Origin: Nitzschia sp. DOCU1
Taxonomy: Eukaryota > Bacillariophyta > Bacillariophyceae > Bacillariales > Bacillariaceae
DNA length: 64,000 nt
NCBI GenBank assembly: GCA_951394045.1
Contig: OX595989.1
Span: forward strand, 3,286,001-3,350,000
Direction: 5' to 3'
Shown here: positions 2,437 through 56,841 of the stretch, piece after piece
Layout: each line of letters starts with the position of its first letter
How positions within the stretch are numbered: position 1 is the stretch's first letter
Position numbers and translations under genes: made by a program
Notes under the pieces: generated by a model
Databases searched by the model: none
What the model was told of the DNA's origin: nothing
The model's input: only the letters and a program-made list of their open reading frames with translations

Positions 2437-3429
2437 TTCTGGTTGAGAGAATGAAAAAAGTGTCGACTTGTTCAAGTATTAGTTTGAGCAAGAGCAATGC
2501 GATGGGAGACGTTGTTATGAGTGGGTGTTGTTAGTCAGAGAAAGCCCCAGAAACCTATAAAAGCGGAGTGAGTGAATCCAAACGTTGGCGCTTTCGTTCT
2601 TGGTGCGATGACAATGATGAGTGATGTAGTGACGAAGAAGAATAGGGCGAACGCATCCATCGATTTCTCTCTCTCCAAACCCAGCATGCGCCCCGTTTGC
2701 AATGAAAGCGGAAGGAACAACTTGGAGCCTCGTCGTAGATAGGCGATCGACGACATTGGATGCAATTAGCGTTTGTTAACTTGTAGGCGGTATTCAAGGG
2801 GCTATTGCTTTATTGGTCCATTCGCCGGTAAATATCTTCGCAATGGAATGACGTGTTGTCGCGTGTATGCATAAGCAACAAACCCAAACCAAAAAGGATA
2901 GCGCTTGGACGAAGCGGTAACAGATTTGGGGAGTTGCGAATCGAGAGAAGGCCCGATCTTTACTTAAGGCACGAAGGCCCAGACATTTACGACGACACGC
3001 CTCTGGGCTCTATCTGCTGTCTCCCACCGACAACGAGTCCAATGGGTCATTGAAAATCCAAATCTTGGGCAAATGCCGGGTCCCTGCTTTGCTACTAAGT
3101 AAGTACTTTCCAAGCGCGCGCCGCGCGCCGGCCTGTCACGTAGACCTTCTACAAACTTCTACAGACTGCCGTGCCATGTCCGCGATTTTGCTCGGAAGAA
3201 GATCGCAACGATGATGGGGCAACAGCGGCGCCGTGTCATTGCCGTAAAGGTCCATTGAAAGAGACAGCGCCGCAACTTACACAACGTCTTGTGTGTGTGT
3301 GTGTTGTGCATTGACCCCGTCTCATTGACGACGATATAGCTACTTTGTAGTCTCTCGAGAAGTCGTCCTTTGTCGGCTGTTGCTCTCCCTGATTTTGACT
3401 GGTTCCTTCCTGGTTCGTCCCCTGAAATC
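2437..3429. promoter_or_regulatory. Divergent intergenic region between the ABC transporter and BEACH genes
   Basis: This 993-bp spacer must hold the promoters of both flanking genes. It contains a (GT)7 microsatellite at 3291-3304 and a GC-only patch around 3113-3131. Short ORFs here have no recognisable protein features. No core promoter element is convincing by eye. Confidence 0.5.
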
Positions 3430-40389: not shown

Positions 40390-43300
40390 ATGGCTGATTA
40401 CGATTCCGAGTATTATGCGACGGACGTCGTCGCGCCTCATAAAAATGAGCACTTGACCTTGGGCGGTGAGGAACTGGAAGAGTATTGCAAAAAGCACGGG
40501 TTGTGCAGTTTGTGTGCTCAAACGCGTACCCACAAACGAGTCTTTCGTCTCAAAAAGAAGAATCAGTGGCAGCCTCTCACAGTGTCCAATAAGGACGATG
40601 GCGAGTACATTGTCTATAAGGGATATTGTGTCCAGCCTGGCTGCTTTACTCTGGAACAAGCGAAACGTTTGTTGGGGGAAGTCGCGCCGGATGCCGTACG
40701 CCACCAGGCGCCCCCAGCACAAGAGCCGGTGTCTCATAATAACCATAGTCATAACCAGCCCAAGGCGATTGATCGGGATCCCGAAGCGGCCTTTGTGGAA
40801 GGACAGAATGAAGAACCCACCCGGAAGGAACGCAAGGGGCTTTCGCGTTTGCTCCTGGGACGAGGGAAAAAGAAAAAGGCCAATGGTGCGGCGTTAAGTG
40901 CCGGAAGCTTTGATAGCATGACGGGCTTTTCGACCGCACCTAAGACCGGGGGTCGTCACCGTGGAGGACCTGCGGGTGGCCGGGCTCGTCCTGGATCGTC
41001 CACGACACAGTCCGAGACTTCAGGCTCGTCGACTCCAGTCAAGTCGGAAATTCGCCGAGACGACGATGATGTCTCGGTCGCATCCAACTACACTAGCATG
41101 ACGAGTGCCAGTAACGTACGCATGTCCTTGGCACAACTCTTGCAGGAAGCCGCTGGAACCATGTTGGATCTTTCTTCGACCCGATTGCATCATAATCACA
41201 TTACGGAACTCGTGAATTCCTTAAATATGGCAAGCGCCCTCGACACGCTCATTTTGGAAAATTGCAAATTGAACGATAATGAGATTGAAATCCTGGGGAA
41301 TGGATTGGCTGGTGAAGGCATGGTGGCTCCCATCAAACGACTCTCCTTTCGTTCCAATCGCATGGGGAATCGAGGAGCTGTCTCGTTGCAAGCGTGGTTT
41401 CTCAAAACGACTACTCTGGAAGAATTGGACATGTCCAAGAATCAAATTGGTAGCCGTGGTGCAGCCTCTACGCTTCACGCCTTTCGAGACAATCCCGGTT
41501 GTAAACTGCGAATGTTGAACTTTGCCCACAATGAGATTTGGGATCCGGATGACGGGTCCTTTTTCGCCGCCAACAAAACCTTGGTACTGATCAATTTGGA
41601 AGGAAACTTCATTCACGATGAGGGCATTGAAGCCATTGCCAATGGCATGCAATCAAACAAGCGATCCAGTTTGCAACGACTCTTTTTGGGATGGAATGGT
41701 ATTGGAGATGTAGGTTGCATGCAATTGGCCCGCATGCTGGAAACCAATACGTCATTGACAACTTTGGGGCTGGGTGAGAATGATATCACTAGCGTGGGAG
41801 CCCGAGCTCTCTTGTCGTCCTTGGCCTCGAATGGGACGCTTCGAGAAATCACTGGCTTGTATCACAATCAGATTGATCGCAAATTCATTGTTGCGGCTAT
41901 CAAGCGCTTGTTGCAGTCGCACGTAGAGGCTGTGGAAGGAAAGGATTTGAGCATGGAACCGAATACTGACTCCTATGAAGAGTCCATATCAGCCATGGAG
42001 ACCTTGGCCGAACCCTTAGGCTCTGCGCTCCCTGTGCCTGAAGAAATGTCGGAAGGCTCCTTGGATTGGGCCGACAAGCTGTTTGTGCCATCAGAAGGTG
42101 GCAAAATCATTCCCATGGCAGAGCGAAACGATCCAGGTGTTCCCTTGGGGACCTTTGACAAGAAGATGGAGCATGGACCTGACTGCACCTGCGCCACTTG
42201 TCAAGCGGCCGCGTCGCGCAAGGAAGAAGCGCCAACTCCAAAGCAACCACCCGTCTCGCGGGCGCCCCCACCAACGACCAATCGTCCAGGCCCCAAACCG
42301 ATTGAATTCGCGCCCATGCCCGAACCCAAGAGCACTTTTGATAGAGTCGTCGTCTTTCAATCGGCGCCTCTGGCGTACTTTAATCGCGACACGTCGCTGC
42401 ATCATGCCGTGCCCTTGCACGACTTTGACTATGAACGTCATGCCATGATCAAGGCGTTGGAAGGGGCCGACAAATTGGGTGCCAATATTGACCTGGAGGT
42501 CGAGCCTGGTCATCCAGATCGCCTGCGCGCGTTCTTTGACAAAAGCCCTAGCCGTGTGTTGCACCTTTCATGTTATGGTCATCCTGAGCATTTGGCATTT
42601 GAAAATGGCGCGGGCTATATTGAGACCATGGCTGCCGAAGAATTGAAGAATCTGATCAAGGCACAAAGTACCGGGCCTTGTCCTCTTAAATTGGTCATCG
42701 TGAACTCTTTTCACTCGGGGCGTATTGGAAAGGCCTTTCTCGATGCGGGTGTTCCCCATGTGGTATGTTGTCACCACACCGAGATCTTCCGTGACAAGGC
42801 GGCGACTGTGTTTGTCAAGAATCTATATCGAGGACTGGCTGCCAACAAATCCTTGAAGCAGGCCTTTCACATGGCGCAGGAAGCTGTTCGAGTGGAAGAG
42901 ATCTCCAAGCACGTGGATCGATACGTCTTATTGCCGCAAAAGCCAGAAGATGATCCTTACCATGATATCCCAATCTTCTACATCGACGAAGTTCCAGCCG
43001 AGGGCATCCGCGACGATGATGTCGAAGACGAAGAACGTCCCAATATCCTCCCTACCCTTCCGAAGCATTTCATTGGCCGGGAAGTCGATATCTACGAGGT
43101 CTTGGAAGCGCTTCGTGTGGACGACGTTGTTCGTATCGGTGGACCAAAAGGAAGCGGAAAGAGTTCCTTGGTGGCGGCGACTTGCCGCTACGTGAATCAA
43201 CGTCGCAAGATGTTTGGTTACGACGAAGTCTTCTGGCTTCCTGCGGCTCATGGCGTTACCCCGCAAGAAGACACTTTGTTTGGCGACCTGTGCGAGCTGA

Positions 43301-44904
43301 TCAATCGAATGATGAAGGGCGGTGACATGTTTGAAGATGAGGAGACAATGGAAATCAGCGACAGAATACAGATTGAGCTCGAAGCGACTCGTGCCTTGAT
43401 TGCAATTGATTCACGCAAATTCGATTCCGAGGTTGCTGCCGAGAACTTGGAACTCTTTTTGGGTGAGCTTTTCAACAAGCCCGAAATCAACGTCAAGATC
43501 CTCTTGGTTTCGTCTGCCAGCGAAGGTGGCGAAGATGAAGGCGAAGAAGATACCATCCGTCTTAAACCGATTGATTTCAAATCGACGGCCTTGCTGTTTG
43601 GCGAAGTCTCGCGCTTTATCACTGCAAACGGTTGCCCAGCTGCCCAATCACCCGATGAATTTGCCGCTTTAATGGTACCACCATCAGTTGCCAAGATTCA
43701 AGACCAAGCCAAGTTCTCATCTAGCCGTCGTACACATCTAATGCATCAAATGGGAAATGGCAATCCCTTGGAGGTCATCAAGGCCGGGAAGAATATGCCA
43801 GCAAGCGCTTTCATCCAGTTGATTGGCATGGCTAACACCCCGGAAGTCCAAGTCGATTCCTTCAAGTCCATGGAAGCTGCCCTGAAGCGTTGGACTGAGC
43901 AGAGGGACCAAGCGGTCAGGGCAAAGAACTATTTGCGCGCCGCCGATTTGGACAAGGTCTTGGCGGAAATCGAAGCATTACGCAATAACTTTCCGAGTCT
44001 AGACGATTTGATGGCCAAGGAACAAGATCTCCAGCGCAAGTTGAGCCTAGCCATGTCCAAGAAGCAGTACACCGCTGGAAACAACATCAAGCGTGAAATC
44101 TTAGCTCTAAAGAAGGTCATCATGCAAGAAAAGCGGGCTTCGAACGTCGGACATGCGGCCAAGGATCAGATTGATGAAATCCAGCGTCAAATGAATTCTA
44201 TAATGAAGTTTGCTCACTCTTCATTCTCTGACATGGACAATCTTATTACTCCTGAAGTCAGCGCGGCGGCTTTTTCGCTGGGATCGGCCTACCACCATTG
44301 CGAAGTTGCCATTTATCCTGGCTCTGTGGTTCACTTCGATCCTGGAAACGATCTCGGTGCCATCATTTGCTGGACCAACGAATGCTGTGACATGCAGCTG
44401 CACGAGAATGGGCGGGAATTGATTGAATACGGCGGCAACAGTCTGGCTCGAGACATTGGTTCCTTGCCAGGAATCACTAAAACTCGATGGGGTCTTGCCA
44501 AGTGCGGAACGGGCAATGCCGTCATTGTCGGACCAGGCAACTACGAAGAACTTCAAGTCCATTGCGTTATATTGGCAGTTGGTCCGCTCTCGCCGGGTGG
44601 TGACGACCACATTGCCGCTGACGACGAGGATTCGCTACACTACGCCAAGATTATGATTCGATCCTGTATACGCTCTGCCTTGATCCTAGCCAAACACTCA
44701 CAAGTTCAGTCTGTAGCCTTCCCGACCCTTACAACCGCACGGGGAGGAGAGACGTACGAACAGACCTTGTTGATGGGGTTGAAGATTTTGGTAGAAGAGG
44801 CCAAGCATTCGGATCTGAACAACCTCCATATCGTGGCAAAGGATGAAGAAGAATCTACCAAGCTCATCGCCATGGCTATCGACATGGGATTAACCATGTC
44901 CTAG
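40390..44904 (+). CDS. NLR-like protein 1: Cys motif, LRR, CHAT-like, STAND NTPase, UVR coiled coil, macro domain
   Basis: One exon, 1504 residues, ATG 40390. Domains in order: Cys motif C33-x5-C39-x2-C42 with C80-x4-C85, possibly metal binding; a disordered Gly/Ser/Arg linker (100-245); ribonuclease-inhibitor-type LRRs (about 255-505, repeated L-x2-L-x-L-x2-N steps); a linker with CTCATC near 599-604; a CHAT fold (about 650-868) with VLHLSCYGH and LVIVNSFHS, where Tyr729 and Phe774 sit at the usual His and Cys positions; FIGRE near 894-898; Walker A GGPKGSGKSS (917-926); Walker B ALIAIDS with Asp1007; two UVR-like helices (about 1173-1245); and a macro domain (about 1290-1500) with ICWTNECC, CGTGNAVIVGPG, ILAVGPL and VAFPTLTTA. 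By analogy with NLRs it may sense a signal and oligomerise, but no function is proven. Paralogs lie at 47109-51491 and 52516-56841. Confidence 0.9.
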   Translation: MADYDSEYYATDVVAPHKNEHLTLGGEELEEYCKKHGLCSLCAQTRTHKRVFRLKKKNQWQPLTVSNKDDGEYIVYKGYCVQPGCFTLEQAKRLLGEVAPDAVRHQAPPAQEPVSHNNHSHNQPKAIDRDPEAAFVEGQNEEPTRKERKGLSRLLLGRGKKKKANGAALSAGSFDSMTGFSTAPKTGGRHRGGPAGGRARPGSSTTQSETSGSSTPVKSEIRRDDDDVSVASNYTSMTSASNVRMSLAQLLQEAAGTMLDLSSTRLHHNHITELVNSLNMASALDTLILENCKLNDNEIEILGNGLAGEGMVAPIKRLSFRSNRMGNRGAVSLQAWFLKTTTLEELDMSKNQIGSRGAASTLHAFRDNPGCKLRMLNFAHNEIWDPDDGSFFAANKTLVLINLEGNFIHDEGIEAIANGMQSNKRSSLQRLFLGWNGIGDVGCMQLARMLETNTSLTTLGLGENDITSVGARALLSSLASNGTLREITGLYHNQIDRKFIVAAIKRLLQSHVEAVEGKDLSMEPNTDSYEESISAMETLAEPLGSALPVPEEMSEGSLDWADKLFVPSEGGKIIPMAERNDPGVPLGTFDKKMEHGPDCTCATCQAAASRKEEAPTPKQPPVSRAPPPTTNRPGPKPIEFAPMPEPKSTFDRVVVFQSAPLAYFNRDTSLHHAVPLHDFDYERHAMIKALEGADKLGANIDLEVEPGHPDRLRAFFDKSPSRVLHLSCYGHPEHLAFENGAGYIETMAAEELKNLIKAQSTGPCPLKLVIVNSFHSGRIGKAFLDAGVPHVVCCHHTEIFRDKAATVFVKNLYRGLAANKSLKQAFHMAQEAVRVEEISKHVDRYVLLPQKPEDDPYHDIPIFYIDEVPAEGIRDDDVEDEERPNILPTLPKHFIGREVDIYEVLEALRVDDVVRIGGPKGSGKSSLVAATCRYVNQRRKMFGYDEVFWLPAAHGVTPQEDTLFGDLCELINRMMKGGDMFEDEETMEISDRIQIELEATRALIAIDSRKFDSEVAAENLELFLGELFNKPEINVKILLVSSASEGGEDEGEEDTIRLKPIDFKSTALLFGEVSRFITANGCPAAQSPDEFAALMVPPSVAKIQDQAKFSSSRRTHLMHQMGNGNPLEVIKAGKNMPASAFIQLIGMANTPEVQVDSFKSMEAALKRWTEQRDQAVRAKNYLRAADLDKVLAEIEALRNNFPSLDDLMAKEQDLQRKLSLAMSKKQYTAGNNIKREILALKKVIMQEKRASNVGHAAKDQIDEIQRQMNSIMKFAHSSFSDMDNLITPEVSAAAFSLGSAYHHCEVAIYPGSVVHFDPGNDLGAIICWTNECCDMQLHENGRELIEYGGNSLARDIGSLPGITKTRWGLAKCGTGNAVIVGPGNYEELQVHCVILAVGPLSPGGDDHIAADDEDSLHYAKIMIRSCIRSALILAKHSQVQSVAFPTLTTARGGETYEQTLLMGLKILVEEAKHSDLNNLHIVAKDEEESTKLIAMAIDMGLTMS

Positions 44905-46170
44905 CCGCGGGGAAGGGATGGGCCTTGGGGACTTGATGCGAATTGAGGCGTGCCCAGGCTTGTAGGCACGGTGATCGCAAGGGAATTACCAGGGGAAAGA
45001 ATCACAACACATACAGCATAAAGCCAAGAAGTTAATATATACATGTTATTATGAATGATACAAAATGATCAATGGTAATGTCGAACAAATCTGGTCGCCC
45101 CGACCAGTTCCATGGTGTGTGGAACAGTTACTTCCTAGCTCGCTTGCTAGCTCGAACGGCAGCTTCAATGTCAGCCGTGAAAGCAACGGGCAAATCATCT
45201 AGCAATGCTCTTGGAGATAGGCGATAGGACAATGCAGGCGTTGCCTTGTCTCGCTTCTTGCTTTCATCTTGGAAAGGGAGGGACAGAGAGGAGGCCATCC
45301 CTGATGTGCTTGGGGCATCCGTCGGGTGGCAAGAGGGTGCGCTTGTTTGCATGTTGTTGTTTGCATTGAAGCGGCTGAAGGGACCAATGTTGTGAGGACG
45401 ATTCATCTAGCCTATATTTGCGCAAGAGATGGTGCATATCTTTTCGGCAATGACTCAAGGGTTTTCGCCCAAGCCAAAGAGCGGACCTGCCAAACCAAAG
45501 AACAACCAACGTTGGCTGGATTGTATTTTGTCCGGGGCGGGTGATAGAGGGCTTACTTACTTGCTTTGATTAACACAACAACTAGTAGATCCCACTTTAT
45601 GTCGCCCGAATCAACTCGTCGCCGCCATGCTGGTATTGATGGGATCCAGGACCGTTGGGCTTATCACCATTGAATGTGTGAGACACTTGCTTGGATGGTA
45701 ACTTCCGATGACCTCTCCATGGTCTTGTAAAGTCATCAACGGCATAAACTGTCATTGCCTTTTGTTTAGAGAGCCAAGACCCGTAGGAACGCGTCGAATG
45801 TTTTGGTCTCCATCATAGTAGTCGGTAAGGTAGCTACGCCGCGTCGCAGTTGTTGTTACTTGATGTAATGTTACTCAACGTCAGTCGTATCGTACGTACG
45901 TACGATGATGACTGCTTCCCGCCACGAGCCAGCATCGCCCTGGACGAGCACGCCCCACCACCCGCCAAATACCCGTTTCTTCGACTTGTACGACTGGTTT
46001 ATTCACGAAAGCTTTCCCGTCAGCGGTCGAGAACAGACGAAACGGCCCTTGCTGACTGCCGCCGAAACCTTTTGCGCCACCACTGCTCGCTGGCCATGAT
46101 GAAGACCGTCATTTACACTTTGAGATGACTCATTGTGCGCTTTTCCTTGTAATCATCAAAGACTCTAACA
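44905..46170. other. Intergenic region between NLR-like 1 and p47/UBX
   Basis: 1.27 kb. The only ORF with a reasonable start is the small minus-strand frame at 45128-45406. An alternating ACGT run (TCGTACGTACGTACGA) sits near 45888-45905, upstream of the p47 gene. Confidence 0.4.
45128..45406 (-). CDS. Small hypothetical protein, 92 residues
   Basis: Starts at ATG 45406, ends at 45128, basic C-terminus (RASKRARK) and Ser/Pro-rich N-terminus. No domain recognised. The length alone does not prove coding; it is listed because it opens with ATG and has no better overlapping frame. Confidence 0.3.
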   Translation of the reverse strand: MNRPHNIGPFSRFNANNNMQTSAPSCHPTDAPSTSGMASSLSLPFQDESKKRDKATPALSYRLSPRALLDDLPVAFTADIEAAVRASKRARK

Positions 46171-46981
46171 ATGGCAAACGTGCACGGACTATTTAGTAAT
46201 CGCAAGGACGATGATTCCGATGATGATGACCACAATAACAGATTTGTTGGAGGCATCGACTCGCGCGGTGGAGGGAGGTACGTCTGGATGGAGGTGCTTT
46301 GCAGTCATTGCATGGGTGGCTTTTCCGCTCACGCTTGCGCATTTCAGTGGTCTAGCCGTCGAGCCGAATCATGATAGTGACGGTGCTCCCCGGGATTCCG
46401 TCTTTGAGCTAGCGGAACAAGCGGGCGGTGACGAGTCGGAACAAGTGAGACGAACGATCACCATGTACCGCGAGGGTTTTGTAGTCGACGACGGGCCATA
46501 TCGAACTTTGGATGATCCTGCAAACGCGGATTTCCTTCGATCCCTCGCTATGGGGCGAACTCCTGCGGAACTCATGGAGGGAGACGGCAATGTCGTAGTG
46601 GGTCTAGTGGACAAACGACAAGAAGACTATGTCGAGACCTTTCGCTCCTTTTCGGGTGCTGGGGCTACACTAGGAAATAGCTCAGCTGTGACTGGAAGTA
46701 CTGTGGATCCTTCTAGTCTTCCCGAAGCCCAACCGGTAGATGAAGGCCGCCCCACAACGTCTATTGCTGTGCGATTACCTAGCGGCAAGCGTAAGGTCCT
46801 CAAAATCAATTTGGACGTTTCGGTATTGCAACTTGCCGCCCACGTTGTGCCAATGCTAGAAGATTCTTCTAGTAGCTTTCAAGTGGTTTCGGGGTTCCCT
46901 CCCAAGCCCTTGGAGGACTTTGATGCAACCGTCGAAGCTGCGGGCCTCAAGGGTGCTCAAATCCAGATAAAGAAAGTATAG
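46171..46981 (+). CDS. p47/NSFL1C-type SEP-UBX cofactor of CDC48/p97
   Basis: Exons 46171-46277 and 46348-46981 (70-bp intron, GTACGT...TCAG, phase 2) encode 246 residues. The joined start reads NNRFVGGIDSRGGG|SGLAVEP, the typical p47-family lead-in. The SEP domain (about 75-150) has ITMYREGF, DDGPYRTLDDP and FLRSLAMGRTPAEL. The UBX domain (about 172-246) has SIAVRLPSGKRK and a GFPPKPL loop in place of FPR. p47 recruits the AAA ATPase CDC48/p97 for membrane fusion and ubiquitin-dependent work. The usual N-terminal UBA domain is missing, as in several short p47 relatives. It lies between two NLR-like genes and converges on the second, with 127 bp between stops. Confidence 0.9.
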
Positions 46982-47108
46982 ATACGATTTGACTATCAAA
47001 ACGCACACGTTTTGTCCCACTTGTCTAACACATATTACAAATAGTGACTGTATTGCCAAGCGGCCCTTCAGCAAACGGACCCCCATTCATATTCAGTCTC
47101 GACCCCTT

Positions 47109-50100
47109 TTACTTCCGTACTACTGGGCTCAGTCCATTCGTCTTTGCCATTTTGATCAATAACCTAGCTTCCTTCTCCGTTGACGCCATGTAGTGAATGG
47201 ACTTGAGCTTGGTGTTCTTGGCTTCCTCGATCAGCGTTTGCAGGCCGATCTGAAGAACTTTTTCATAAACTTTGCCTCCTTCCTTCGTCGTTACGGTGGA
47301 AATTCCGACCGCCTCCATCCCGGTATTCTTGATTAGCCCAAACGCCGAGCGATAGCAAGATTTCAGCCCCGTTTCCACAAAGTTGAATGCATCTTCATCT
47401 GTCGTTTCATCCCACTCGTCGTCATCATTGGATGGCGACATTGGAGGGACGGCCAATACCACGTATCGGGCTGCCAATTTGGAATAGGAACGCGGTCCCA
47501 CAATTTCCGCCTCCCCAATGGCAATCTTGGCAGGCCCCCACTTGGTGTCGGCAAGAGCAGGGAGGAATTCAGCATCATCTTTGAGATTTTTCCCACCAAA
47601 ACTTAGGATTTGTTCCCCAACCTTGTAGGTAGTAAAGTCGCAATTCTCGTTCGTCCAGCAGACAAGACCTGACATTCCACCGGAATACGAAAAGTCGACG
47701 ATGACTCCCGCAGAAATGCGTAATTCACATTGGGACGCATTTCGGATTGCAAGAGTGCAATCAGCAATGTCTTCGTCGGTCAATTTGATTTGATTCGCCT
47801 GCGCCTGAAGTTGATCAATTCTGGCTTGCAACTTTTGGAGCCTCTCAGATGAAGGCGCCGCAGCTGCACCCTTCGGCTTGGAGAACTTTTCCCTCATCAT
47901 ATCCTTCTTCAAGGCCAAGATCTGACGTTTAACCTTGTTGGCTTCGTCGTACTTGCGCGCCTTGAGGAGTTCTGAAAATTCTTTCTTGAGTTCCTTCTCT
48001 TTCTCCGCGAGATTATCCAGGCTCGGGAATTTCGACTTCATCCTTTCCAGCTCGTCCAGAGTGTCTGCCAGATCTTGGGCACGTAAAAAGTTCTTTCGCT
48101 TGAGCGCCTTTTCCAGTTGAGAAGTTCTCGTGGTAATTTCGTTCTTCAGCGCTTCAGCATTTTCTACTTGCACTTCAGGACGTTGGGCGAATCGGCCCAT
48201 GTTCGCTAGATCTTCTTCCGAGATGGTAGCGGCAGCAGCAATGACATCCTTTGGAATTCCCCTGCCCATTTGATTGTAGAGCTCCAGCTGCCGACGTGAT
48301 AATTCCTTGTTAAGATCCGCTCCTTGCTTCTTGACAGACGGAGGGACCATCAACTTGGCAAACTCTTCGGCTGTGTGGACCAGTAGGTTGCCTTCCGGAG
48401 AAACATGAGGACACGAATGCCCAAACAACAACGCGGTCGACTTGAAGTCTAGGGGACCCATCGTAATCATGGTTTCCTCCGCTCGCGATCGCTTGGTGCG
48501 GGCACTTCCTTCGTGGGCGGTCAATAGGATGATCTTGACACTTACTTCATTGAGAAGATGCGACAAGAACCTTTCCAAGTTCTCGCCGGAGGCTTCCGTA
48601 AGGAAAATACGGCCATCGATGATCAAAATGGACTTTTGGTCTTCCAACTCAACCATGATACGTTCTCGACACTCGGCGTAGAGGTCTTCATCCCAGATGT
48701 CATCCTCGGCCTCTACCAACAGATCAATGACTTGACAGAGGTCTCCGTAGCAAGTATCCTCTTCCGGAAATATATCAGGTGGAGCGGGGAGCCAATAGAC
48801 AGCACCGATACCGAAGGACTTGGGTCGAGAAAGGATGTATCGACTGACCGCGGCAAGGAGTGTCTTTTTGCCACTTCCTTCGGTACCACCTATTCGCACC
48901 ACATCATCGACACGCAACGACTCGAGAATTTCATACATGTCGACTTCTCTCCCCACAAAATGTGGTGGGAGAGGAGGAAGCATGGACATATCACCAGGTG
49001 GCGGCAGGGCTGGCTTCTTCGGCAACCTTCCCCCAAACAAGACATCAATCATGTGGTAATCCGAGGTTGGAGGTTGCTTCGGGAGCAGCATGAAGCGTGT
49101 CGAGTTATCGACCGCTTTTACCGCATTGTCGAATGCTTCTTGAAGTGTCTTGTTTTCGGCCAACGACTTGTAGAATACTTTCGCAAATTCTACCGGGCCT
49201 TCGTCTCGGAAGAAAGGTTCCCGTTCGCAGCATACAACGTGTTTGACCCCTGCATTCAAAAAGATATCGGCGGTAGCCTGCGCATGAACTGCGGAGACGA
49301 CGACCACCTTGGTAGTTCCTTGGTTCGATTTGATGAGCTGTTCCAGATCGTCGCGACCCATTGCATGCATGTAGCCAAATCCATTTTCTAATGCAAGGCA
49401 ATCAGGGTGACCGTGCGACATGAAATGTAGAACTGGACTGATGCCTCGAGAAAAGAATTCTTTTATGCGATCCAGCGTGGCGATTTCATGGACAACTTCA
49501 ATATGAGCGCCAAGGGAATCCTTGTTCTCGAACAGTTCCTCCAGAGCAGCCTCCTCGTAATCAAAGTCCAGTAATGGGACGTCATGATGCTCTGAAGTCT
49601 GGCGATTGAAGTAGGCCAGCGGTGCGGATCTAAAGATTGAGATTCGGCCAACCTTGAGTCCACTAGTTGACATCGGACCGGTGTCTTCCTCTTCCTCCTC
49701 GTCCGTAGAGTCGGGCATGGGCTCTGGCATGGCGCCTGGTGCCAGCTGATTCTCTCGTTCTTCGATCTCGTCGATACCAAAGGTTCCCCAGTCCCAGTGT
49801 TCAATGGCGTCTAGTGCCACGCTGCTCCTCTTTTCCTGTGGCGGTTCATCCGCTCGGGGTTCCGCATACATTTGTGCGGCCCAGTTTGTGGAATTGTCCG
49901 AGGCGTCGTCGTCAGCTTCTGGCGTCTTTTCTTCACCAGGCACGGTTGGCTTTGGCGGTGGCTGCTCGCCCCCCTCGCCATCGTCTGGCTGTGCCAGTCC
50001 GGTTCTTTCCCCATAGCGATGGAGCAAGCGCTTGATGGCCACAATAATAAATTTCCGATCGATCTGATTATGATACAGACCACTAATTTCTCGGACGCTG

Positions 50101-51491
50101 GTATTGACTGCAAGAGCCGACAAGATAGCACGGGCTCCCGTGTTACTGATGTCGTTCTCGGCCAGTCCCAGGACCTGAACGGTGGCGTTAACTTCCATCA
50201 TTTTCGCAAGGGCAGTTGCACCGTCGTCCGAAATTCCATTCCATCCCAAATAGAGCTTCTCGATAACGGAGTTTTTGTTTGCAGCAATGGCGTTGGCGAT
50301 GTGTTCGGCGCCTTCATCATGCATGAAGTTACCGTCCAGATTCAATGTTTTGAGAGTTTTGTTCGTGCGAAGGAAGGTACCATCGTCCATGTCCCAGATT
50401 TCATTCTGGGAGAGGTTGAGAGTATGCAAGATGGTTCGTCGATTCTTGCTCAAAGCATCCAACACGGCAACAGCACCCCGGCTACTGATGGCGTTTTCGC
50501 TAAGATCCAACTCCTCCAAGGTGGTTGACTGCTCCAACAAAAAGACCAGAGACTCGGCACCCTTATTTCCCACATTGTTTTGGCGCAAGCTCAACTTTTT
50601 GAGATTTATGTGATTACCAGCCTTGATACCTTCCATGATCCTTTCAACGCCTTCATCTCTTAACTTGCATTTGTCCAAGGTGACACTCTCCAAAGTCTTG
50701 GCCTTTCCTAGGGCGTTAACGACTGCTTCCAGATCTTCGGTTCGAAGCGAGACCTTACTCAAGTCTAAAACCGTGAAGTAGTCATAGAGCATAAGCTGTT
50801 CGACCCGATGAGAGACGATGGGATTAATCTCCCCGTCTTCTACAGTTGGATTGACATCCTTGGTCATGGTAGTGTCCACAGTGGCATCATCGTCGTCACT
50901 CATATCCATGCTCGAGACTGATGAAGAAGTGGAGCCGCCCGACGAATTTTTCTTGGCTTTTCGTCGCCTACGAAAGTTAGCAATTCCGCTGAAGCCGCTC
51001 ATCCCACTGATTCCACTGATGGCCGAAAGACCACTCATGGCGGACATCCCAGACATGTCGGAAGCAATGGACATATCGTCGTCCTGCATAGCGCTCATAA
51101 CGCTGCCAGTTTCAGGGTTGGCTCTGGGTTTGCGTCGACTCGGTCGTTTGGCCCCACCTTTAAAGCGATCTGATAATCGTTGACGGCGTGAACTAGCACG
51201 ACCCCCACCGCCACCTTCCCCCAGCATTCGTTTCGCTTGTCCTAGCGTAAAACAGGTGGGCTGAAGACAGTACCCTTTGTAGACGGTGTATTCTCCAGTC
51301 ATATCATCATGCAACGTCATAGGCTCCCATTTACGGCCTCGCCCAAACATCTTGACGACGCGGCGGTGCGTCTTGACCTTGGCGCAACGACGACACAAGC
51401 CATGATCCTTGCAGTATTCTTCAAACTCTTCGCCGCTCAAGACTTTGCCGTCGACTTCTAAGAAGGAGACTGTAGGGTACCCTTCAGCCAT
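47109..51491 (-). CDS. NLR-like protein 2: Cys motif, LRR, CHAT-like, STAND NTPase, UVR coiled coil, macro domain
   Basis: One exon, 1460 residues, ATG 51491. Same order as NLR-like 1: Cys motif C27, C33, C36, C75, C80; a linker with a short SGMS/SGLS/SGIS repeat (about 147-170); LRRs (about 235-490); an acidic linker; CHAT-like (about 612-820), where His693 is kept (HFMSHGH) but the Cys position is Val735 (VVSAVHA); FVGRE near 845-849; Walker A GGTEGSGKKT (868-877); Walker B ILIIDG with Asp959; UVR-like helices (about 1125-1200); and macro domain (about 1245-1455) with VCWTNENC and AIGEAEIVGP. CC follows HVV at 754-755, as in the other two. It is divergent from NLR-like 3 and convergent with p47. 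Confidence 0.9.
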   Translation of the reverse strand: MAEGYPTVSFLEVDGKVLSGEEFEEYCKDHGLCRRCAKVKTHRRVVKMFGRGRKWEPMTLHDDMTGEYTVYKGYCLQPTCFTLGQAKRMLGEGGGGGRASSRRQRLSDRFKGGAKRPSRRKPRANPETGSVMSAMQDDDMSIASDMSGMSAMSGLSAISGISGMSGFSGIANFRRRRKAKKNSSGGSTSSSVSSMDMSDDDDATVDTTMTKDVNPTVEDGEINPIVSHRVEQLMLYDYFTVLDLSKVSLRTEDLEAVVNALGKAKTLESVTLDKCKLRDEGVERIMEGIKAGNHINLKKLSLRQNNVGNKGAESLVFLLEQSTTLEELDLSENAISSRGAVAVLDALSKNRRTILHTLNLSQNEIWDMDDGTFLRTNKTLKTLNLDGNFMHDEGAEHIANAIAANKNSVIEKLYLGWNGISDDGATALAKMMEVNATVQVLGLAENDISNTGARAILSALAVNTSVREISGLYHNQIDRKFIIVAIKRLLHRYGERTGLAQPDDGEGGEQPPPKPTVPGEEKTPEADDDASDNSTNWAAQMYAEPRADEPPQEKRSSVALDAIEHWDWGTFGIDEIEERENQLAPGAMPEPMPDSTDEEEEEDTGPMSTSGLKVGRISIFRSAPLAYFNRQTSEHHDVPLLDFDYEEAALEELFENKDSLGAHIEVVHEIATLDRIKEFFSRGISPVLHFMSHGHPDCLALENGFGYMHAMGRDDLEQLIKSNQGTTKVVVVSAVHAQATADIFLNAGVKHVVCCEREPFFRDEGPVEFAKVFYKSLAENKTLQEAFDNAVKAVDNSTRFMLLPKQPPTSDYHMIDVLFGGRLPKKPALPPPGDMSMLPPLPPHFVGREVDMYEILESLRVDDVVRIGGTEGSGKKTLLAAVSRYILSRPKSFGIGAVYWLPAPPDIFPEEDTCYGDLCQVIDLLVEAEDDIWDEDLYAECRERIMVELEDQKSILIIDGRIFLTEASGENLERFLSHLLNEVSVKIILLTAHEGSARTKRSRAEETMITMGPLDFKSTALLFGHSCPHVSPEGNLLVHTAEEFAKLMVPPSVKKQGADLNKELSRRQLELYNQMGRGIPKDVIAAAATISEEDLANMGRFAQRPEVQVENAEALKNEITTRTSQLEKALKRKNFLRAQDLADTLDELERMKSKFPSLDNLAEKEKELKKEFSELLKARKYDEANKVKRQILALKKDMMREKFSKPKGAAAAPSSERLQKLQARIDQLQAQANQIKLTDEDIADCTLAIRNASQCELRISAGVIVDFSYSGGMSGLVCWTNENCDFTTYKVGEQILSFGGKNLKDDAEFLPALADTKWGPAKIAIGEAEIVGPRSYSKLAARYVVLAVPPMSPSNDDDEWDETTDEDAFNFVETGLKSCYRSAFGLIKNTGMEAVGISTVTTKEGGKVYEKVLQIGLQTLIEEAKNTKLKSIHYMASTEKEARLLIKMAKTNGLSPVVRK

Positions 51492-52515
51492 TTTTGTGGG
51501 TAAAAGGTTCCTTTAGAGGAAATGCAAAGTACCCGACACTGAAGTAAAAGCCACTAATTGAAGTGTTCGAACACAAAATCGGTTGTTTCTAGTGTCGATC
51601 TCCTACACTTTAGGCATGCAGAGATCTTTAGAGGTCCTAATTCAAGGCAAAGAAGAACTTTCGCTCCCGTCACACAGGCTCGGAACGATCTTCACGAAAG
51701 AGGCGCGTTGACCCCAAAAATTCATCTTCAGTGGTGGCTCACGCTTTTCAATCTCTGGCTCGCTCTGCGCGCAAGCGGTCATAACTATGACTTTTCTCAA
51801 CATTCTGTACCAAGGTCAACGTACGTGGGTTTACGTGATCGTCAGTCAATCGTACGTGCATTTTCCGAGAAATTTTAAGTCAATTTAGTCATTTGGTATA
51901 TTTAAGCCGGTGGGAAAAGTCGCCTATTTCGTCGGTCTGCCGGGCTCGAAAATTTCATTTGATAGCCTGCGACACATCGGAACGGATGGCATGAAGTCGT
52001 CAATTCTGGAGGATGTAATTTTTCACAAGCTGGGCTTTTACTTAACATACTTTTAGGAAAGGCATAACTTTTTTGTAAGCAGTCATCCTGTGTCCGACAC
52101 TGTAGTGGACTTGGTGGTGCCACAGCATCTGAGATCTTCTCTCTCTCTTACCATCATCGGACTGCAACGCACCTTTCATCCTGTTTGAGAAGGTCCAACT
52201 TTGGCTTGTGCATTTCGGGTTATTCAGGGCGCCAATTGGACCGTGTTAGGATCTCCACGAGACGGGTCAAGATAGTGGAAAGAGCTAGCGATCCAAGGAA
52301 AGGTGAAGGGAACGGACCAGCGCAGAAGTGTGTATACCATCGACAATCGGTTGCGTGCAAAACACATTCGATTGCACCGTCTGGCGAGGGGTGCTACCCA
52401 AGAAAACTTTATCAGTTACTGGTATTATTCTTCCTGCATTGAACTATCTTAAACAAGCAGTTCAAGTTTGCCACTCCTGGGTGAATTAATCTATACTATC
52501 GGTGACCACGCCAGC
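51492..52515. promoter_or_regulatory. Head-to-head spacer between NLR-like 2 and NLR-like 3, with TACGTG cluster
   Basis: 1.02 kb between divergent starts. Three TACGTG sites (51822-51827, 51832-51837, 51853-51858) lie within 37 bp, about 330-370 bp upstream of the NLR-like 2 ATG. ACGT-core sites are classic bZIP targets. Shared regulation of the two genes is possible, not shown. Short ORFs here are not convincing. Confidence 0.5.
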
Positions 52516-55500
52516 ATGAAAACCTCTCACGTCTACGCCGAGAGACCGCCCATGAAAAATCGAGAGTCAGTACAGAATATCAACAAAATGGCCTTGAAGT
52601 TGGAGGGAGATGAATTGGAAGACTACTGCAAAAAGCGTGGTCTTTGTCCACTGTGTGCGAAAACTCGAACGAAGAAGAAAGCGTTCAAACTTATGAACAA
52701 AAACAAATGGGAATTATTGACTATCACGGACAGGAAAGGGGCGTACAAAGTATACAAAGGATATTGCGTTAAACAAAACTGCTTCACCTTGGACCAAGCG
52801 AAGCGACTGGCTGGAGAGGTGGTGGCCTCGTCCGAACCGCGAAGACGGAACCTCAAGGTGAATCCTAGCCTTAATCGATCCACATCGAACGTATCCAGTG
52901 TCGGCGGGGAAGATTCCGATGACGACGCAAATGAAACAAATAAGGGAAGTCAATTGGCGCACAAACGCACTCCAGAAGCCTTTCCTCCGCCGGAACTGCG
53001 GAATGCCGCCAATTTTGAGGTACGGGACGACCAACCACTTTTTGTGATTGAGAAGGCAGTCGAGGGCCTGCATCAAAACTCGAATACGATACTTGTTTTG
53101 GAACTGAGTGGTCTACAACTACGAACGATTGACTTTAAATCACTGGCTGAGGGGCTGAAGGTCAATTCGACATTGACCGCCCTGATATTGGAAAACTCAA
53201 AGTTGGACGACAAACACCTCAGCATCATTGCTTCGGGATTGGAAAAGGCGAGTGATATCCCACTTAAAAAGCTCTACTTGAGAAGCAATCAAGTGGGAGA
53301 TACAGGAGTCGACGCTTTGCGCCCATTTCTACAGGCCAACAACACTCTAGAGAGACTCGATCTGTCGAGGAATTGCGTCACGAGTCGGGGAGCACTGGCG
53401 ATCTTCAGTGCCTTTCATCGCAACACGTTGACCAGGATCAGAAGCATCGACTTATCTCACAATAATCTGGGGGATTTGGTTGACGAGTCGAGTGGGATTG
53501 AGCCCTTTCTGGGGGGAAATGGTAGTCTGCGGATACTTAACCTCGAAGGAAACCGCTTGAACGACGAGACCATCCAAGCTTTGTCTTTGGGAATGAAACA
53601 CAATGATCAGACCGCGCTAGAGCGATTGTACCTAGGTTGGAATTCGTTCGGCGACGATGGGGCCATGGCATTGGCAGAAATGCTGGAAGAAAATACGTCG
53701 CTGCTGGTCCTGGGGCTTGGGGAAAATCAGATACAGAATTTGGGTGGGAGAGCACTGTTGGCTGCATTGGATCGGAACGTTACGCTCAAGGATATACCAG
53801 GGCTATGGAGAAACAAAATCGATAGGCGTTTTATCATCATTGCGATTAGACGGCTGTTACTAACCAATGAAAAGAACGACAAGGTGAGGTCGAAGCTGTA
53901 CGAACAATCCCCTTCCAACAATCCCGGAAGAATGGCTTCTGTGATAGCTTTCGATTCCGGGTTCGACGACCCTTTTGACTCTACACCGAGCGTGGGGGGA
54001 GGAACCGCAGTGAGTACAATGTCAAATGATGTGGACTATGCTGAGCCGTCTAGTACTACAGACGCCGACGATGACGACATGCCGGTTGGTCGTGGAAGGA
54101 AGCCTACACATGTGCGAGTCGCCAGGCTAATGCCACAACAAGAAGAGGGAATGGTAGATTCAGATAGTTTGCCCGATGGGGAAGACTCCCCGTACGATCA
54201 AATGGTGATATTGCAATCAAATGCGTTGACTACGTTTGATCGAGAGACTGGGACCCACACGCCGATTCCAGCCATTGATGTCGATTACGAGAGCTCTCTC
54301 ATAAAGGAAGCGTTAAGCCAAGTAGTGGTAGGCAAGATCGATACCGAGGTTGAAGTTGCCACTGTGGAAAGCTTCGCGGCAGCGTTCGAGCGGTCAAAAT
54401 CCACTATTCTGCACATTTCGTGCGTCGGACAAACAAATCAGCTAGTACTTGAAGAAGGCTTCGGTGGGATCCAAAACATATCCATTGGCGACGTCAAACG
54501 ACTTGTCACATCTTCGGAGGGCAGGCTTCAAGTGGTTGTTGTGTCTTCTCGAGATGCAAAGCCGATCGGGAAGATGTTTATAGATACAGGCGTGCCACAC
54601 GTGGTGTGCTGTTCTCTAGATTACCGATTTCGCGACTTGGTGGGAATGGAGTTCGTGCAGAACTTCTACGCGGCTTTGGGGGGAAACAAGCCTTTGCAGC
54701 AGGCATTTCAGATTGCCAGATCCGCCGCCTGCACTTGCCCCCATGCAAAGGCGCAGCGCCTGGTCTCGGAGCGCTTTATGCTATTACCCGAACGCGGTGA
54801 CACAGACAACTACCACAATATTCCGGTCTTTTTCAATAAGTACATGCCTCCTAAGCATGTTGAGGAGAATGAAGAGGACCTGGGTACTCCCCAAGCCGAT
54901 CAGCTACCAAGACTCCCACAAAATTTTGTAGGCAGAGAGACGGTCGTTTATAAAATCTTGGAAAAAATTCGGGCAGACGACATTGTGCGAGTCATCGGAC
55001 CCCCTGGTTGTGGCAAAGACACTGTCGCCACAGCGGCGTGTCACTACGCTCTGAAGAGACGAGACATGTTGAAGTTGGACTTCTTATTTTGGTTGCCTGC
55101 CCCGGATGGAGTCGTCCCCGACGAGGACTCGCTCTATGAGGATCTTTGTCGAACTGTCAATTTTTTTAGGGGCACGGAGTCCTTGGGTGACGACGATACT
55201 TTGCTGGACCGGATTGAAATTGAGCTAGAGAGTCTTCGCACGCTGTTGGTGGTTGACGCGCGACAGTTTGAGAATCGAGCATCTCAAGTCGCGCTTGAGA
55301 AGTTTATTTCGTTTGTGCTGAATGTCGGCTCTACCAAGATTGTGCTTCTAGAAAATCGAAGCTCCGCGGATGAAATGTCACCCATTTCCCCTATTATACG
55401 CGACGCCACTGACTCGAACTTCGACGAAGCTACCATTGAAGTGACTCCTCTGGATTTCAAGCCGACCGCCCAACTCTTTGGAGAAGTATCCAAGTTTATT

Positions 55501-56841
55501 ACAAGCAGTGGGATTCCCGCCGCCCATGATGCCGCAGAATTCGCCGAGTTACTGGAGCCCTCCTATCTCCACGACGTTGACCTGAATTCCCTTATCTCCC
55601 AACGTCGATCCGATTTGTACAGCAGGATGGGCAATGGGATTCCTGCAGATGTCATAAAGGCTGCTAGCAACATGCCTTCGCGTGATTTCATTGACTTGAT
55701 TCGCATTGCCCATCGCCCCGAAATCTTTGTGGATTCTCTGAGTGCCCTCGATTTGGAAATTGAACGCCGGACTCTTCAAAAATCCAAGGCAGTTGACGAC
55801 AAAAACTACTTGCGGGCGACGGACTTGGATACTCTCCTGGAGGAATTGGATAGCATGCGGCCCGAGTTCCCTACGCTTGAAGAATTGAAGGAAGAAGAGG
55901 ATCTCATGAAGGCCGATCTGGCCGATGCAGTGGCAAATCGCCAGTACGATCAAGCCAACGAACTGAAGCGCGAACTGATAGCCATCAAGAAGAAGATAAT
56001 CAAGGAGAAACGATCTACGAATGCGGCCAAGAAAGAACGCGACCCAAATGACCAGGCCAAGAAGCTTAAAGCCCAAGTTCAAAACATGGTTTTGGCATCC
56101 AAGCGCCGTGATAGCAGCTTTCGGGGCCTGCCTGGCAACTTGGCCCCCCTTGTGGATCCCACCGGCCCGAATTTTGAAGTTACGTTTGCGATTACATGTG
56201 GCGACCATCGAGATTGCTCCTTTGTTGTCTGCGTGGGGGATGTGTTGGATTTTGAACATCCTGCAGACGCCCGCGGAATTGTCTGCTGGACCAACGAATG
56301 CTGTCAGCTAGAAGGAACCACTCAGGGCGATGCCTTGTTGGGCATGGGAGGCACCGCTGTGCGGGATGAACTATCCGAGCTGCCTGAAATGGTCAAGACT
56401 CCGTACGGCTCGGTTCGCTGTGCTACGGGAAATGCGTTGATCATGGGCCCCGCGAACTTTGGCCTTTTGAAATCGCCGTGTATCATCTTGTCCGTGGGCC
56501 CTCTGGCACCAAGTCGTTCGAATGTGAAAGTTCCGGAGAACGAGGAAGAAGAATATTGGACGGCTGATACGTTGGTGTATACAACGACTATGCTACGAAG
56601 TTGCTATCGCTCTAGCATTGTCCTAGCCAAGCATGCTGAACTCCAGGCACTTGCCTTGAGCTTATCTACCACTTCACCCCAAAGCCCCAGCTACGAGGCG
56701 ATGATACAAATCGGCTTGCAAACACTTGTCGAGGAAGTCCAGTTCTCTCATTTGCGGGATCTGCATTTGATGGCGCGGACGCCCGAGGAGGCTTCCTTGC
56801 TTGTGGAAATTTTGCATGATATGGGGCACCGCCAAATATAG
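52516..56841 (+). CDS. NLR-like protein 3: Cys motif, LRR, CHAT-like, STAND NTPase, UVR coiled coil, macro domain
   Basis: One exon. The frame opens at TTG 52468; the first ATG is 52516 (1441 residues), with in-frame ATGs at 52552 and 52588 that would keep the Cys motif. By comparison with the paralogs, 52516 or 52552 fits best. Domains: Cys motif C38, C44, C47, C84, C89; LRRs (about 190-450); CHAT-like (about 560-772) with HISCVG, so Val637 at the His position and Arg679 at the Cys position; FVGRE near 804-808; Walker A IGPPGCGKDT (827-836); Walker B LLVVDA with Asp914; UVR-like helices (about 1090-1165); macro domain (about 1220-1435) with VCWTNECC, CATGNALIMGPA and IILSVGPL. CC at 698-699. 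Its stop lies 35 bp from that of a convergent small membrane-protein gene. Confidence 0.9.
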   Translation: MKTSHVYAERPPMKNRESVQNINKMALKLEGDELEDYCKKRGLCPLCAKTRTKKKAFKLMNKNKWELLTITDRKGAYKVYKGYCVKQNCFTLDQAKRLAGEVVASSEPRRRNLKVNPSLNRSTSNVSSVGGEDSDDDANETNKGSQLAHKRTPEAFPPPELRNAANFEVRDDQPLFVIEKAVEGLHQNSNTILVLELSGLQLRTIDFKSLAEGLKVNSTLTALILENSKLDDKHLSIIASGLEKASDIPLKKLYLRSNQVGDTGVDALRPFLQANNTLERLDLSRNCVTSRGALAIFSAFHRNTLTRIRSIDLSHNNLGDLVDESSGIEPFLGGNGSLRILNLEGNRLNDETIQALSLGMKHNDQTALERLYLGWNSFGDDGAMALAEMLEENTSLLVLGLGENQIQNLGGRALLAALDRNVTLKDIPGLWRNKIDRRFIIIAIRRLLLTNEKNDKVRSKLYEQSPSNNPGRMASVIAFDSGFDDPFDSTPSVGGGTAVSTMSNDVDYAEPSSTTDADDDDMPVGRGRKPTHVRVARLMPQQEEGMVDSDSLPDGEDSPYDQMVILQSNALTTFDRETGTHTPIPAIDVDYESSLIKEALSQVVVGKIDTEVEVATVESFAAAFERSKSTILHISCVGQTNQLVLEEGFGGIQNISIGDVKRLVTSSEGRLQVVVVSSRDAKPIGKMFIDTGVPHVVCCSLDYRFRDLVGMEFVQNFYAALGGNKPLQQAFQIARSAACTCPHAKAQRLVSERFMLLPERGDTDNYHNIPVFFNKYMPPKHVEENEEDLGTPQADQLPRLPQNFVGRETVVYKILEKIRADDIVRVIGPPGCGKDTVATAACHYALKRRDMLKLDFLFWLPAPDGVVPDEDSLYEDLCRTVNFFRGTESLGDDDTLLDRIEIELESLRTLLVVDARQFENRASQVALEKFISFVLNVGSTKIVLLENRSSADEMSPISPIIRDATDSNFDEATIEVTPLDFKPTAQLFGEVSKFITSSGIPAAHDAAEFAELLEPSYLHDVDLNSLISQRRSDLYSRMGNGIPADVIKAASNMPSRDFIDLIRIAHRPEIFVDSLSALDLEIERRTLQKSKAVDDKNYLRATDLDTLLEELDSMRPEFPTLEELKEEEDLMKADLADAVANRQYDQANELKRELIAIKKKIIKEKRSTNAAKKERDPNDQAKKLKAQVQNMVLASKRRDSSFRGLPGNLAPLVDPTGPNFEVTFAITCGDHRDCSFVVCVGDVLDFEHPADARGIVCWTNECCQLEGTTQGDALLGMGGTAVRDELSELPEMVKTPYGSVRCATGNALIMGPANFGLLKSPCIILSVGPLAPSRSNVKVPENEEEEYWTADTLVYTTTMLRSCYRSSIVLAKHAELQALALSLSTTSPQSPSYEAMIQIGLQTLVEEVQFSHLRDLHLMARTPEEASLLVEILHDMGHRQI

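What the first reader, a model, noticed from the sequence alone, without database searches (positions are those of the whole stretch)
40390..56841. Three paralogous LRR-CHAT-STAND-UVR-macro proteins: a candidate undescribed NLR-like system
Seen: three single-exon genes with the same domain order, namely Cys motif, RI-type LRRs, CHAT fold, GRE plus P-loop NTPase, two UVR-like helices and macro domain. Known: STAND NTPases with LRRs are immune sensors, CHAT domains are caspase-like proteases of prokaryotic and eukaryotic defence, and macro domains bind or hydrolyse ADP-ribose. Inference: a diatom sensor that links ligand recognition and nucleotide-dependent assembly to ADP-ribose signalling. The combination of LRR, CHAT, STAND and macro in one chain is unfamiliar to me.
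Basis: partly seen in the sequence, partly recalled or inferred. Interest (0 to 1): 0.95.

Follow-up and report, generated by a model that had tools for sequence, protein, structure and literature searches.

The report
Diatom NLR-like proteins with dead enzymes
A cluster of three related diatom genes encodes large immune-receptor-like proteins that keep the shapes of a protease and of an ADP-ribose-binding domain but have lost the residues those need to work, which suggests they became sensors or regulators of a still-active sister protein.

Summary

The proposed mechanism is not supported. None of the three window proteins keeps the CHAT His-Cys dyad; 9 of 81 macro-bearing family members (window included) do. 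The seven macro-less CHAT paralogues found in the same genome keep it. The MacroD-type catalytic loop is gone: no member has the Asn-rich or GGG-V-D motif. Walker A Ser/Thr survives in W1 only, but some macro-less paralogues lost it too.

The family's sister gene, on contig 11 of the same genome, has the same order without macro, with dyad and Walker A intact. Best reading: a macro domain was fused to an active LRR-CHAT-STAND protein, whose copies then repeatedly lost protease activity and became sensor or regulatory pseudoenzymes. Partner and immune role are inferred.

The parts
40390..44904 (+). W1 (clade A): 1504-aa Cys-LRR-CHAT-NTPase-helical-macro protein
   Evidence: open frame; Pfam; AlphaFold; clade A of the trees
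40459..40689 (+). W1 N-terminal Cys module (aa 24-100), C-x5-C-x2-C ... VYKGYC-x4-C
   Evidence: alignment A1; AlphaFold pLDDT mostly 87-96 over 31-100
41158..41922 (+). W1 RI-type LRRs (aa 257-511)
42340..43011 (+). W1 CHAT fold (aa 651-874); dyad positions are Y729 and F774 instead of His and Cys
43048..43860 (+). W1 STAND-type NTPase (aa 887-1157); Walker A GPKGSGKS intact
   Evidence: nSTAND1 over cut-off in six-frame scan
43879..44139 (+).
   Evidence: AlphaFold helices; no Pfam UVR match listed
44263..44901 (+). W1 macro fold (aa 1292-1504) with CWTNE in place of NAANE and no GGGGVD loop
47109..51491 (-). W2 (clade B): 1460-aa paralogue, same order
   Evidence: A1; clade B
49014..49649 (-). 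W2 CHAT (aa 615-826): His693 kept, Cys replaced by V735
48159..48980 (-). W2 NTPase (aa 838-1111), Walker A GTEGSGKK (Ser/Thr lost)
   Evidence: NACHT below cut-off
47112..47759 (-). W2 macro (aa 1245-1460), catalytic loop lost
   Evidence: NCBIfam PRK00431 E 0.0044, far below its curated cut-off
52468..56841 (+). W3 (clade C): 1457-aa paralogue, same order; start ATG probably 52516, 52552 or 52588
   Evidence: clade C
54196..54855 (+). W3 CHAT (aa 577-796): V653 and R695 at the dyad positions
   Evidence: no Pfam CHAT match listed, assigned by alignment to W1
54904..55737 (+). W3 NTPase (aa 813-1090), Walker A GPPGCGKD (Ser/Thr lost)
   Evidence: nSTAND1 over cut-off
56173..56838 (+). W3 macro (aa 1236-1457), catalytic loop lost
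   Evidence: by alignment only

Best explanation
Shown by sequence and prediction: W1-W3 are one member each of three clades of a diatom family that most simply arose when a MacroD-like macro domain was added to the C-terminus of an active Cys-LRR-CHAT-nSTAND1 protein; the CHAT dyad was then lost repeatedly, and the macro catalytic loop was replaced. Inferred: the macro-bearing proteins are pseudoenzyme sensors or regulators. Ligand binding at the LRRs or the remodelled macro pocket would change the NTPase state and assembly, and the CHAT fold would serve as a docking or inhibitory surface. Execution would lie with a protease-competent relative, most likely the macro-less sister on contig 11 of the same genome, much as plant sensor NLRs act through helpers or cFLIP through caspase-8 (analogies recalled, not tested). 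Confidence in the anatomy and the losses is about 0.9; the number below is for the whole regulatory reading.
For: Folds of W1. Catalytic columns fixed by alignment to SAVED-CHAT 8tl0 (profile E 9.9e-9; GHG His and AC Cys); in another CHAT protease, Craspase TPR-CHAT, changing the catalytic Cys to Ala or Ser abolishes activity (passages of PMC9729208). Dyad intact in 14 of 14 relatives without macro but 9 of 79 macro-bearing rows; two macro-bearing hits found later also lack it, so 9 of 81. Same genome: 7 of 7 macro-less CHAT genes found are intact, 0 of 3 macro-bearing (Fisher p 0.008). Each clade still holds dyad-intact members (A P0034; B P0057, P0058; C six), so losses in W1, W2 and W3 are most simply independent; the Cys state changes at least 8 times on the tree. 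Sister gene gC11a: Cys-LRR-CHAT(His, Cys)-nSTAND1(GKS)-helical, no macro, joined to the macro-bearing rows at 100/100 (20 of 81 macro-bearing rows were in that tree). Macro: NAAN-type and GGG-V-D-type motifs in 0 of 81, W[TSA]NE in 81 of 81; the canonical C10 macro of the same genome keeps both motifs and matches W1 (29%, E 8e-15). Between W1 and P0001 the CHAT is 85% identical, the other three parts 78-93%, so the dyad-less CHAT is still constrained.
Against: No partner, ligand, phenotype or expression change was tested. The link between macro and dyad loss is not absolute: 9 of 81 macro-bearing proteins keep the dyad. W2 keeps its His. Walker A decay is not special to macro-bearing copies: 4 of 7 macro-less CHAT paralogues of the genome (gC9, gC10, gC11b, gC15; gC10's alignment there is poor) also lack Ser/Thr. 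The Fisher test treats paralogues as independent, which they are not. In clade A a single ancestral loss with regain in P0034 is as short as, or shorter than, several losses. At least two of the 14 relatives without macro, P0081 and P0084, look cut off before the end of the NTPase, so their lack of macro is uncertain. gC11a lacks the first Cys of the Cys module. No gasdermin was found, but that search rang in no control genome, so it says nothing.
Confidence: 0.4

Rival explanations
1. Stand-alone scaffold: W1, W2 and W3 assemble only with each other. W1 supplies the nucleotide switch, W2 and W3 are structural, and the output is recruitment by the CHAT or macro surface rather than proteolysis.
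For: A, B and C proteins P0005, P0060 and P0087 each report a contig of 40,740 bp from the same source; Walker A Ser/Thr kept in A 40 of 52, B 0 of 8, C 0 of 19; none of the 12 other long frames scanned (of 14 of 250 aa or more) shows an obvious effector domain in Pfam.
Against: On that contig the A protein P0005 also lacks Ser/Thr (GKC); clade C keeps an intact dyad in 6 of 19, which a pure scaffold would not need.
Confidence: 0.27
2. One reading: each protein is a self-contained receptor with working CHAT protease output and ADP-ribose-dependent control by the macro domain.
For: Domain order and folds are as described.
Against: 0 of 3 window proteins have the CHAT Cys, 1 of 3 the His; macro motifs lost in 3 of 3. 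An unusual nucleophile or binding mode cannot be excluded by sequence.
Confidence: 0.06
3. Remodelled nucleotide sensor: the macro fold still binds an NAD-derived or other nucleotide through its new CWTNE pocket, and the proteins sense metabolite state rather than microbes.
For: W, N and E of CWTNE invariant in 81 of 81; in the pairs compared the macro part is about as conserved as the other parts; one PARP match in the genome.
Against: Glycine-rich loop and the second loop (SAGVF in the C10 macro) are both replaced; GDAP2, a similar macro domain, is recalled as a non-hydrolase.
Confidence: 0.22
4. Decaying pseudogenes: the lost catalytic residues reflect genes drifting without function.
For: Several catalytic sites are lost at once.
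Against: Three intact frames of 1457-1504 aa; many dyad-less relatives of 1400-1700 aa; four hits are MMETSP transcripts (P0024, P0037, P0057, P0065); an aromatic residue sits at the Cys position in 49 of 52 clade A rows, and NSFHSG in 34 of 52.
Confidence: 0.03

Closest known systems
LRR-CHAT-STAND proteins without macro, in the same genome and elsewhere (gC11a, gC7; P0071 and relatives)
   Same: in gC11a and gC7 LRRs come before CHAT and a STAND-type NTPase; gC11a also shares the Cys module and the helical part
   Different: intact CHAT dyad, no macro domain
Fungal NLRs with an N-terminal CHAT protease, some clustered with gasdermin genes
   Same: CHAT in an NLR-type protein (passages of PMC12881547 and PMC10197012)
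   Different: fungal NLRs are described there with mainly WD40, TPR or ANK repeats as C-terminal sensor; here RI-type LRRs lie N-terminal, a macro domain is C-terminal, and the CHAT mostly lacks its dyad
SAVED-CHAT (8tl0) and Craspase TPR-CHAT
   Different: active His-Cys proteases of type III CRISPR systems (8tl0 role recalled; TPR-CHAT from PMC9729208 passages); W1-W3 lack the Cys
Animal NLRs (NOD2, NLRP3)
   Different: reverse domain order and no CHAT or macro domain (recalled)
MacroD-type and GDAP2 macro domains
   Same: fold, and sequence match to MACROD1 (E 0.0024) and GDAP2 (E 0.0067)
   Different: catalytic motifs replaced; C-terminal domain of a STAND protein
Plant sensor/helper NLR pairs
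   Same: clustered paralogues, a divergent gene pair (W2/W3), degenerate copies beside a competent relative (recalled analogy)
   Different: no shared domains beyond the STAND and LRR classes; helper role of gC11a untested

Membership tests
CHAT protease | CHAT fold | tested here: met
CHAT protease | catalytic His and Cys | tested here: not met
   W1 Y/F, W2 H/V, W3 V/R
STAND NTPase (nSTAND1) | profile match over curated cut-off | tested here: met
   W1 28.5 and W3 29.0 vs 27.1; below cut-off with full proteins; W2 not matched in either
STAND NTPase (nSTAND1) | Walker A GxxxxGK[ST] | tested here: inconclusive
   met in W1 (GKS); not met in W2 (GKK) and W3 (GKD)
STAND NTPase (nSTAND1) | Walker B Asp and GxP motif | tested here: met
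   Walker B Asp in 78 of 79, GxP Pro in 79 of 79 macro-bearing rows (motif roles recalled)
STAND NTPase (nSTAND1) | fold of the NTPase part | tested here: inconclusive
   W1 887-1157 predicted mostly with high pLDDT, but macro and CHAT matches fill the lists
NLR (animal/plant sense) | effector - NTPase - C-terminal LRR order | tested here: not met
   LRRs are N-terminal, macro C-terminal
NLR (animal/plant sense) | ligand-induced oligomerisation and immune output | not testable with these tools
   needs biochemistry and genetics
Macro domain | macro fold | tested here: met
MacroD-type ADP-ribose hydrolase | catalytic loop with NAAN Asn and GGG-V-D Asp | tested here: not met
   in the alignment 0 of 81 keep the first Asn and 1 of 81 an Asp at that column (loop alignment uncertain); alignment-free, GG[GA][VIL]D in 0 of 81; C10 macro as yardstick; motif itself recalled
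MacroD-type ADP-ribose hydrolase | ADP-ribose binding | not testable with these tools
   needs calorimetry or a structure
Known anti-phage defence family | PADLOC model match | tested here: not met
   0 families for 3 proteins at E<=0.01

The most novel reading that the evidence does not exclude
A lineage-specific immune module built from pseudoenzymes: three linked receptor paralogues, one from each clade, in which the protease, the ADP-ribose site and (in two of three) the nucleotide switch have been turned from catalysis to recognition, wired to a protease-competent sister elsewhere in the genome. To my knowledge (recalled, no search beyond those cited) it would be the first NLR-like sensor/helper network in a unicellular alga, evolved on caspase-like rather than TIR or coiled-coil output.
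Probability: 0.2. Interest if true: 0.88.

Novelty: new variant of a known kind. Interest (0 to 1): 0.7.

Why it matters
How diatoms sense viruses, bacteria or damage inside the cell is largely open, and receptor networks of the NLR kind are known mainly from plants, animals, fungi and bacteria (general knowledge). Here one genome holds a dyad-intact LRR-CHAT-STAND gene and three macro-bearing derivatives with eroded active sites. That makes two things testable: whether an alga uses caspase-like NLRs, and whether sensors and executors split by repeated loss of catalysis, as recalled for plant NLR networks. It also warns that source names such as 'O-acetyl-ADP-ribose deacetylase' and 'CHAT domain-containing protein', given to several relatives, may mislead about activity.

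Tried and rejected
Prokaryotic or viral origin: one pattern-based scan each of genome contigs and viral contigs with A2 found no relatives; each used one short peptide pattern only, so this is weak. Known defence family: PADLOC gave nothing. PDB search with the W1 CHAT alone gave one unrelated weak hit and with the NTPase alone only P-loop matches to PilT; the profile search settled the CHAT. The VIA-align lists are filled by CHAT, macro and LRR rows, so the NTPase and Cys-module folds remain untested. Gasdermin in the genome: none, but the search rang in no control, so it is no evidence. The macro search in long proteins returned 53 proteins: 51 already, and P0095 and P0096, which carry the same CHAT, Walker A and WTNE motifs. 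It saw only proteins of about 827-2632 aa and missed clade B and most of clade C, so free-standing or distant macro relatives could not appear. I considered Walker A loss as a mark of the macro-bearing proteins and dropped it: 4 of 7 macro-less CHAT paralogues have lost it too; in 8 of 12 outgroup rows the Walker Lys itself is Arg. An attempt to compare branch lengths of macro-bearing and macro-less clades gave an unusable number, because the outgroup node took in the whole tree. The careful tree has two long rows, gC6 and gC10, joined to each other, and its chosen outgroup was not one clade; their places are unsure. A strict Cys-module pattern matched 42 of 99 proteins; a looser look showed it in many more, the rest being mainly fragments and macro-less relatives. 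Rows left out of the trees: P0065, P0069 (fragments), P0070 (His not covered, no macro, wrongly scored as macro by the length filter), P0083, P0084, P0094. P0083 and P0084 are counted in the 14 of 14; P0065, P0069, P0070 and P0094 are in neither count. Two of the 14 other frames of 250 aa or more in the window were not scanned with Pfam. Paper searches listed nothing on this architecture (listings only).
Full report
OBSERVATION. The region 40390-56841 holds three large uninterrupted frames, W1 (+), W2 (-) and W3 (+), of 1504, 1460 and 1457 aa. W3's frame is counted from a TTG; ATGs follow at 52516, 52552 and 52588. W2 and W3 align with W1 along their length at 41% and 39% identity. A SEP-UBX gene lies between W1 and W2, and W2 and W3 are divergent with about 1 kb between them. 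Pfam finds LRR_6 in all three, CHAT above cut-off in W1 and just below in W2, nSTAND1 just below cut-off in W1 and W3, and Macro above cut-off in W1; six-frame scans of the whole genome put W1 and W2 over the CHAT cut-off and W1 and W3 over nSTAND1.

FAMILY AND DISTRIBUTION. Searches with W1 and W3 gave 84 and 14 proteins, and one with the W1 macro part gave 53. Named macro-bearing sources are Nitzschia, Cylindrotheca, Pseudo-nitzschia and 'Bacillariaceae sp.'; the three species I looked up are Bacillariaceae. Trees of the CHAT-to-helical part, with catalytic columns left out, give three clades: A with W1, 52 rows; B with W2, 8; C with W3, 19 or 21; SH-aLRT 97-100. P0005 (A), P0060 (B) and P0087 (C) all report a longest contig of 40,740 bp from the same source; P0006 (A) and P0088 (C) share 29,104; P0051 (A) and P0096 (C) share 17,540; Cylindrotheca fusiformis genes AAC.20 (A) and AAC.22 (C) share scaffold8535. 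Equal contig lengths are indirect evidence of linkage. Together they suggest a conserved cluster.

THE PROTEASE SITE. The dyad columns were fixed by alignment to 8tl0, where GHG and AC line up with the family columns. W1 has Y729 and F774, W2 H693 and V735, W3 V653 and R695. Of 79 macro-bearing rows (the window's three included), 9 have both residues, 17 His only, 3 Cys only, 50 neither; 14 of 14 relatives without macro, P0071-P0084, have both. Of those 14, P0081 and P0084 look truncated, so their lack of macro is uncertain. By clade: A 1 of 52, B 2 of 8, C 6 of 19; P0095 and P0096, added later, have neither, giving 9 of 81. The Cys state changes at least 7 or 8 times. Because every clade has an intact member and the outgroups are intact, the losses in W1, W2 and W3 are most simply independent, though loss and regain in clade A is not excluded. 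Replacements differ by clade: Phe or Tyr in 49 of 52 of A; Val in 3 and Asn in 2 of 8 of B; Arg in 7 of 19 of C.

SAME-GENOME CONTROL. The window lies in a 52-Mb assembly of 63 contigs. CHAT genes found there: W1-W3 plus seven others on contigs 6, 7, 9, 10, 11 (two) and 15 (the tool calls such counts lower bounds). No macro match better than E 0.045 lies in the stretches fetched around those seven. All seven keep His and Cys: 7 of 7 versus 0 of 3, Fisher p 0.008, with the caveat that paralogues are not independent. The gene at C11:826222-830464 (gC11a) has Cys module, LRRs, CHAT, a probable intron, an NTPase over the nSTAND1 and NB-ARC cut-offs with GKS, a helical part, then a stop and no macro. 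In a careful tree with 20 of the 81 macro-bearing rows it is their sister (100/100; macro-bearing rows together 99/98). So the macro domain was most simply gained on the stem of A, B and C.

THE MACRO SITE. Pfam Macro has three matches in the genome: W1, a MacroD-like protein at C10 and one at C8. W1's macro matches the C10 protein (29%, E 8e-15). Where C10 reads GAIVNAANESCLGGGGVDG, W1 reads GAIICWTNECC followed by an unrelated loop. In the alignment of 81 macro-bearing members the first Asn is kept in 0 and the catalytic Asp column in 1, with some uncertainty in the loop; the second Asn, the new Trp and the Glu are invariant in 81. Without alignment, an N[AS][AS]N or GG[GA][VIL]D motif occurs in 0 of 81 and W[TSA]NE in 81 of 81. 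That these are the MacroD catalytic residues is recalled. PDB profile matches include the GDAP2 macro domain along most of its length.

THE NUCLEOTIDE SITE. Walker A Ser/Thr is kept in A 40 of 52, B 0 of 8, C 0 of 19, and 12 of 12 outgroup rows. But 4 of 7 macro-less paralogues in the genome lack it, so this decay is not tied to the macro domain. Walker B Asp is present in 78 of 79 and the GxP Pro in 79 of 79.

HOW IT LIKELY WORKS. In described STAND proteins the effector lies before the NTPase and the sensor behind it (passages of PMC10907252, PMC10197012). By position the CHAT is the former effector and the macro the added sensor-side domain. With both sites eroded but the folds and sequences still conserved, the likeliest role is regulation: recognition by LRR or remodelled macro, switching by the NTPase, and output through contact with a competent CHAT protein such as gC11a. 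The anatomy, the losses and the sister relation are shown by computation; partner, ligand, switching and immune role are inferred.

COMPARISON AND NOVELTY. CHAT-bearing NLRs are described in fungi (passages). I found 0 papers holding 'CHAT domain' with 'macro domain' or with 'macrodomain', 0 holding three of CHAT domain, diatom, leucine-rich repeat and macro domain, and the one paper with diatom and CHAT domain concerns a cyanobacterium (listing only). The library lacks most subscription journals and all bioRxiv preprints. I rate it a new variant of a known kind.

Noticed in passing
L010 1465-6043 (G000:C11:826222-830464): Macro-less sister gene of the family with intact CHAT dyad, intact Walker A and a probable intron at the CHAT-NTPase junction; lacks the first Cys of the Cys module.
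   Followed up: yes
L012 and L014 (G000 C9 and C11): Two closely related CHAT-NTPase genes (gC9, gC11b) on different contigs that keep the CHAT dyad but have GKV at Walker A.
   Followed up: partly
L016 1-4212 (G000:C11:1108370): The same N-terminal Cys module (47% identical to W1) sits in a frame with armadillo-type repeats and no CHAT match (1404 of 1451 aa scanned): the module is shared beyond this family.
   Followed up: partly
window 46211-46981: SEP-UBX domain gene between W1 and W2, 128 bp from the end of W2.
   Followed up: no
window 17091-19358 and 22416-25008: Two CHASE - histidine kinase - receiver hybrid kinases, the second spread over two frames.
   Followed up: no
window 3370-11979 and 28454-30277: BEACH-domain protein and an ATG13-like autophagy gene in the same window.
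   Followed up: no
L019 (G000:C10:870756-871151): Only one PARP catalytic-domain match in the genome, so ADP-ribose writers of that type appear few.
   Followed up: no
Pfam columns: Newer Pfam entries PF27087 and PF27089, not named in the copy searched here, are assigned to many relatives; PF27087 seems to fall in the N-terminal or LRR part, as relatives without that part lack it.
   Followed up: partly
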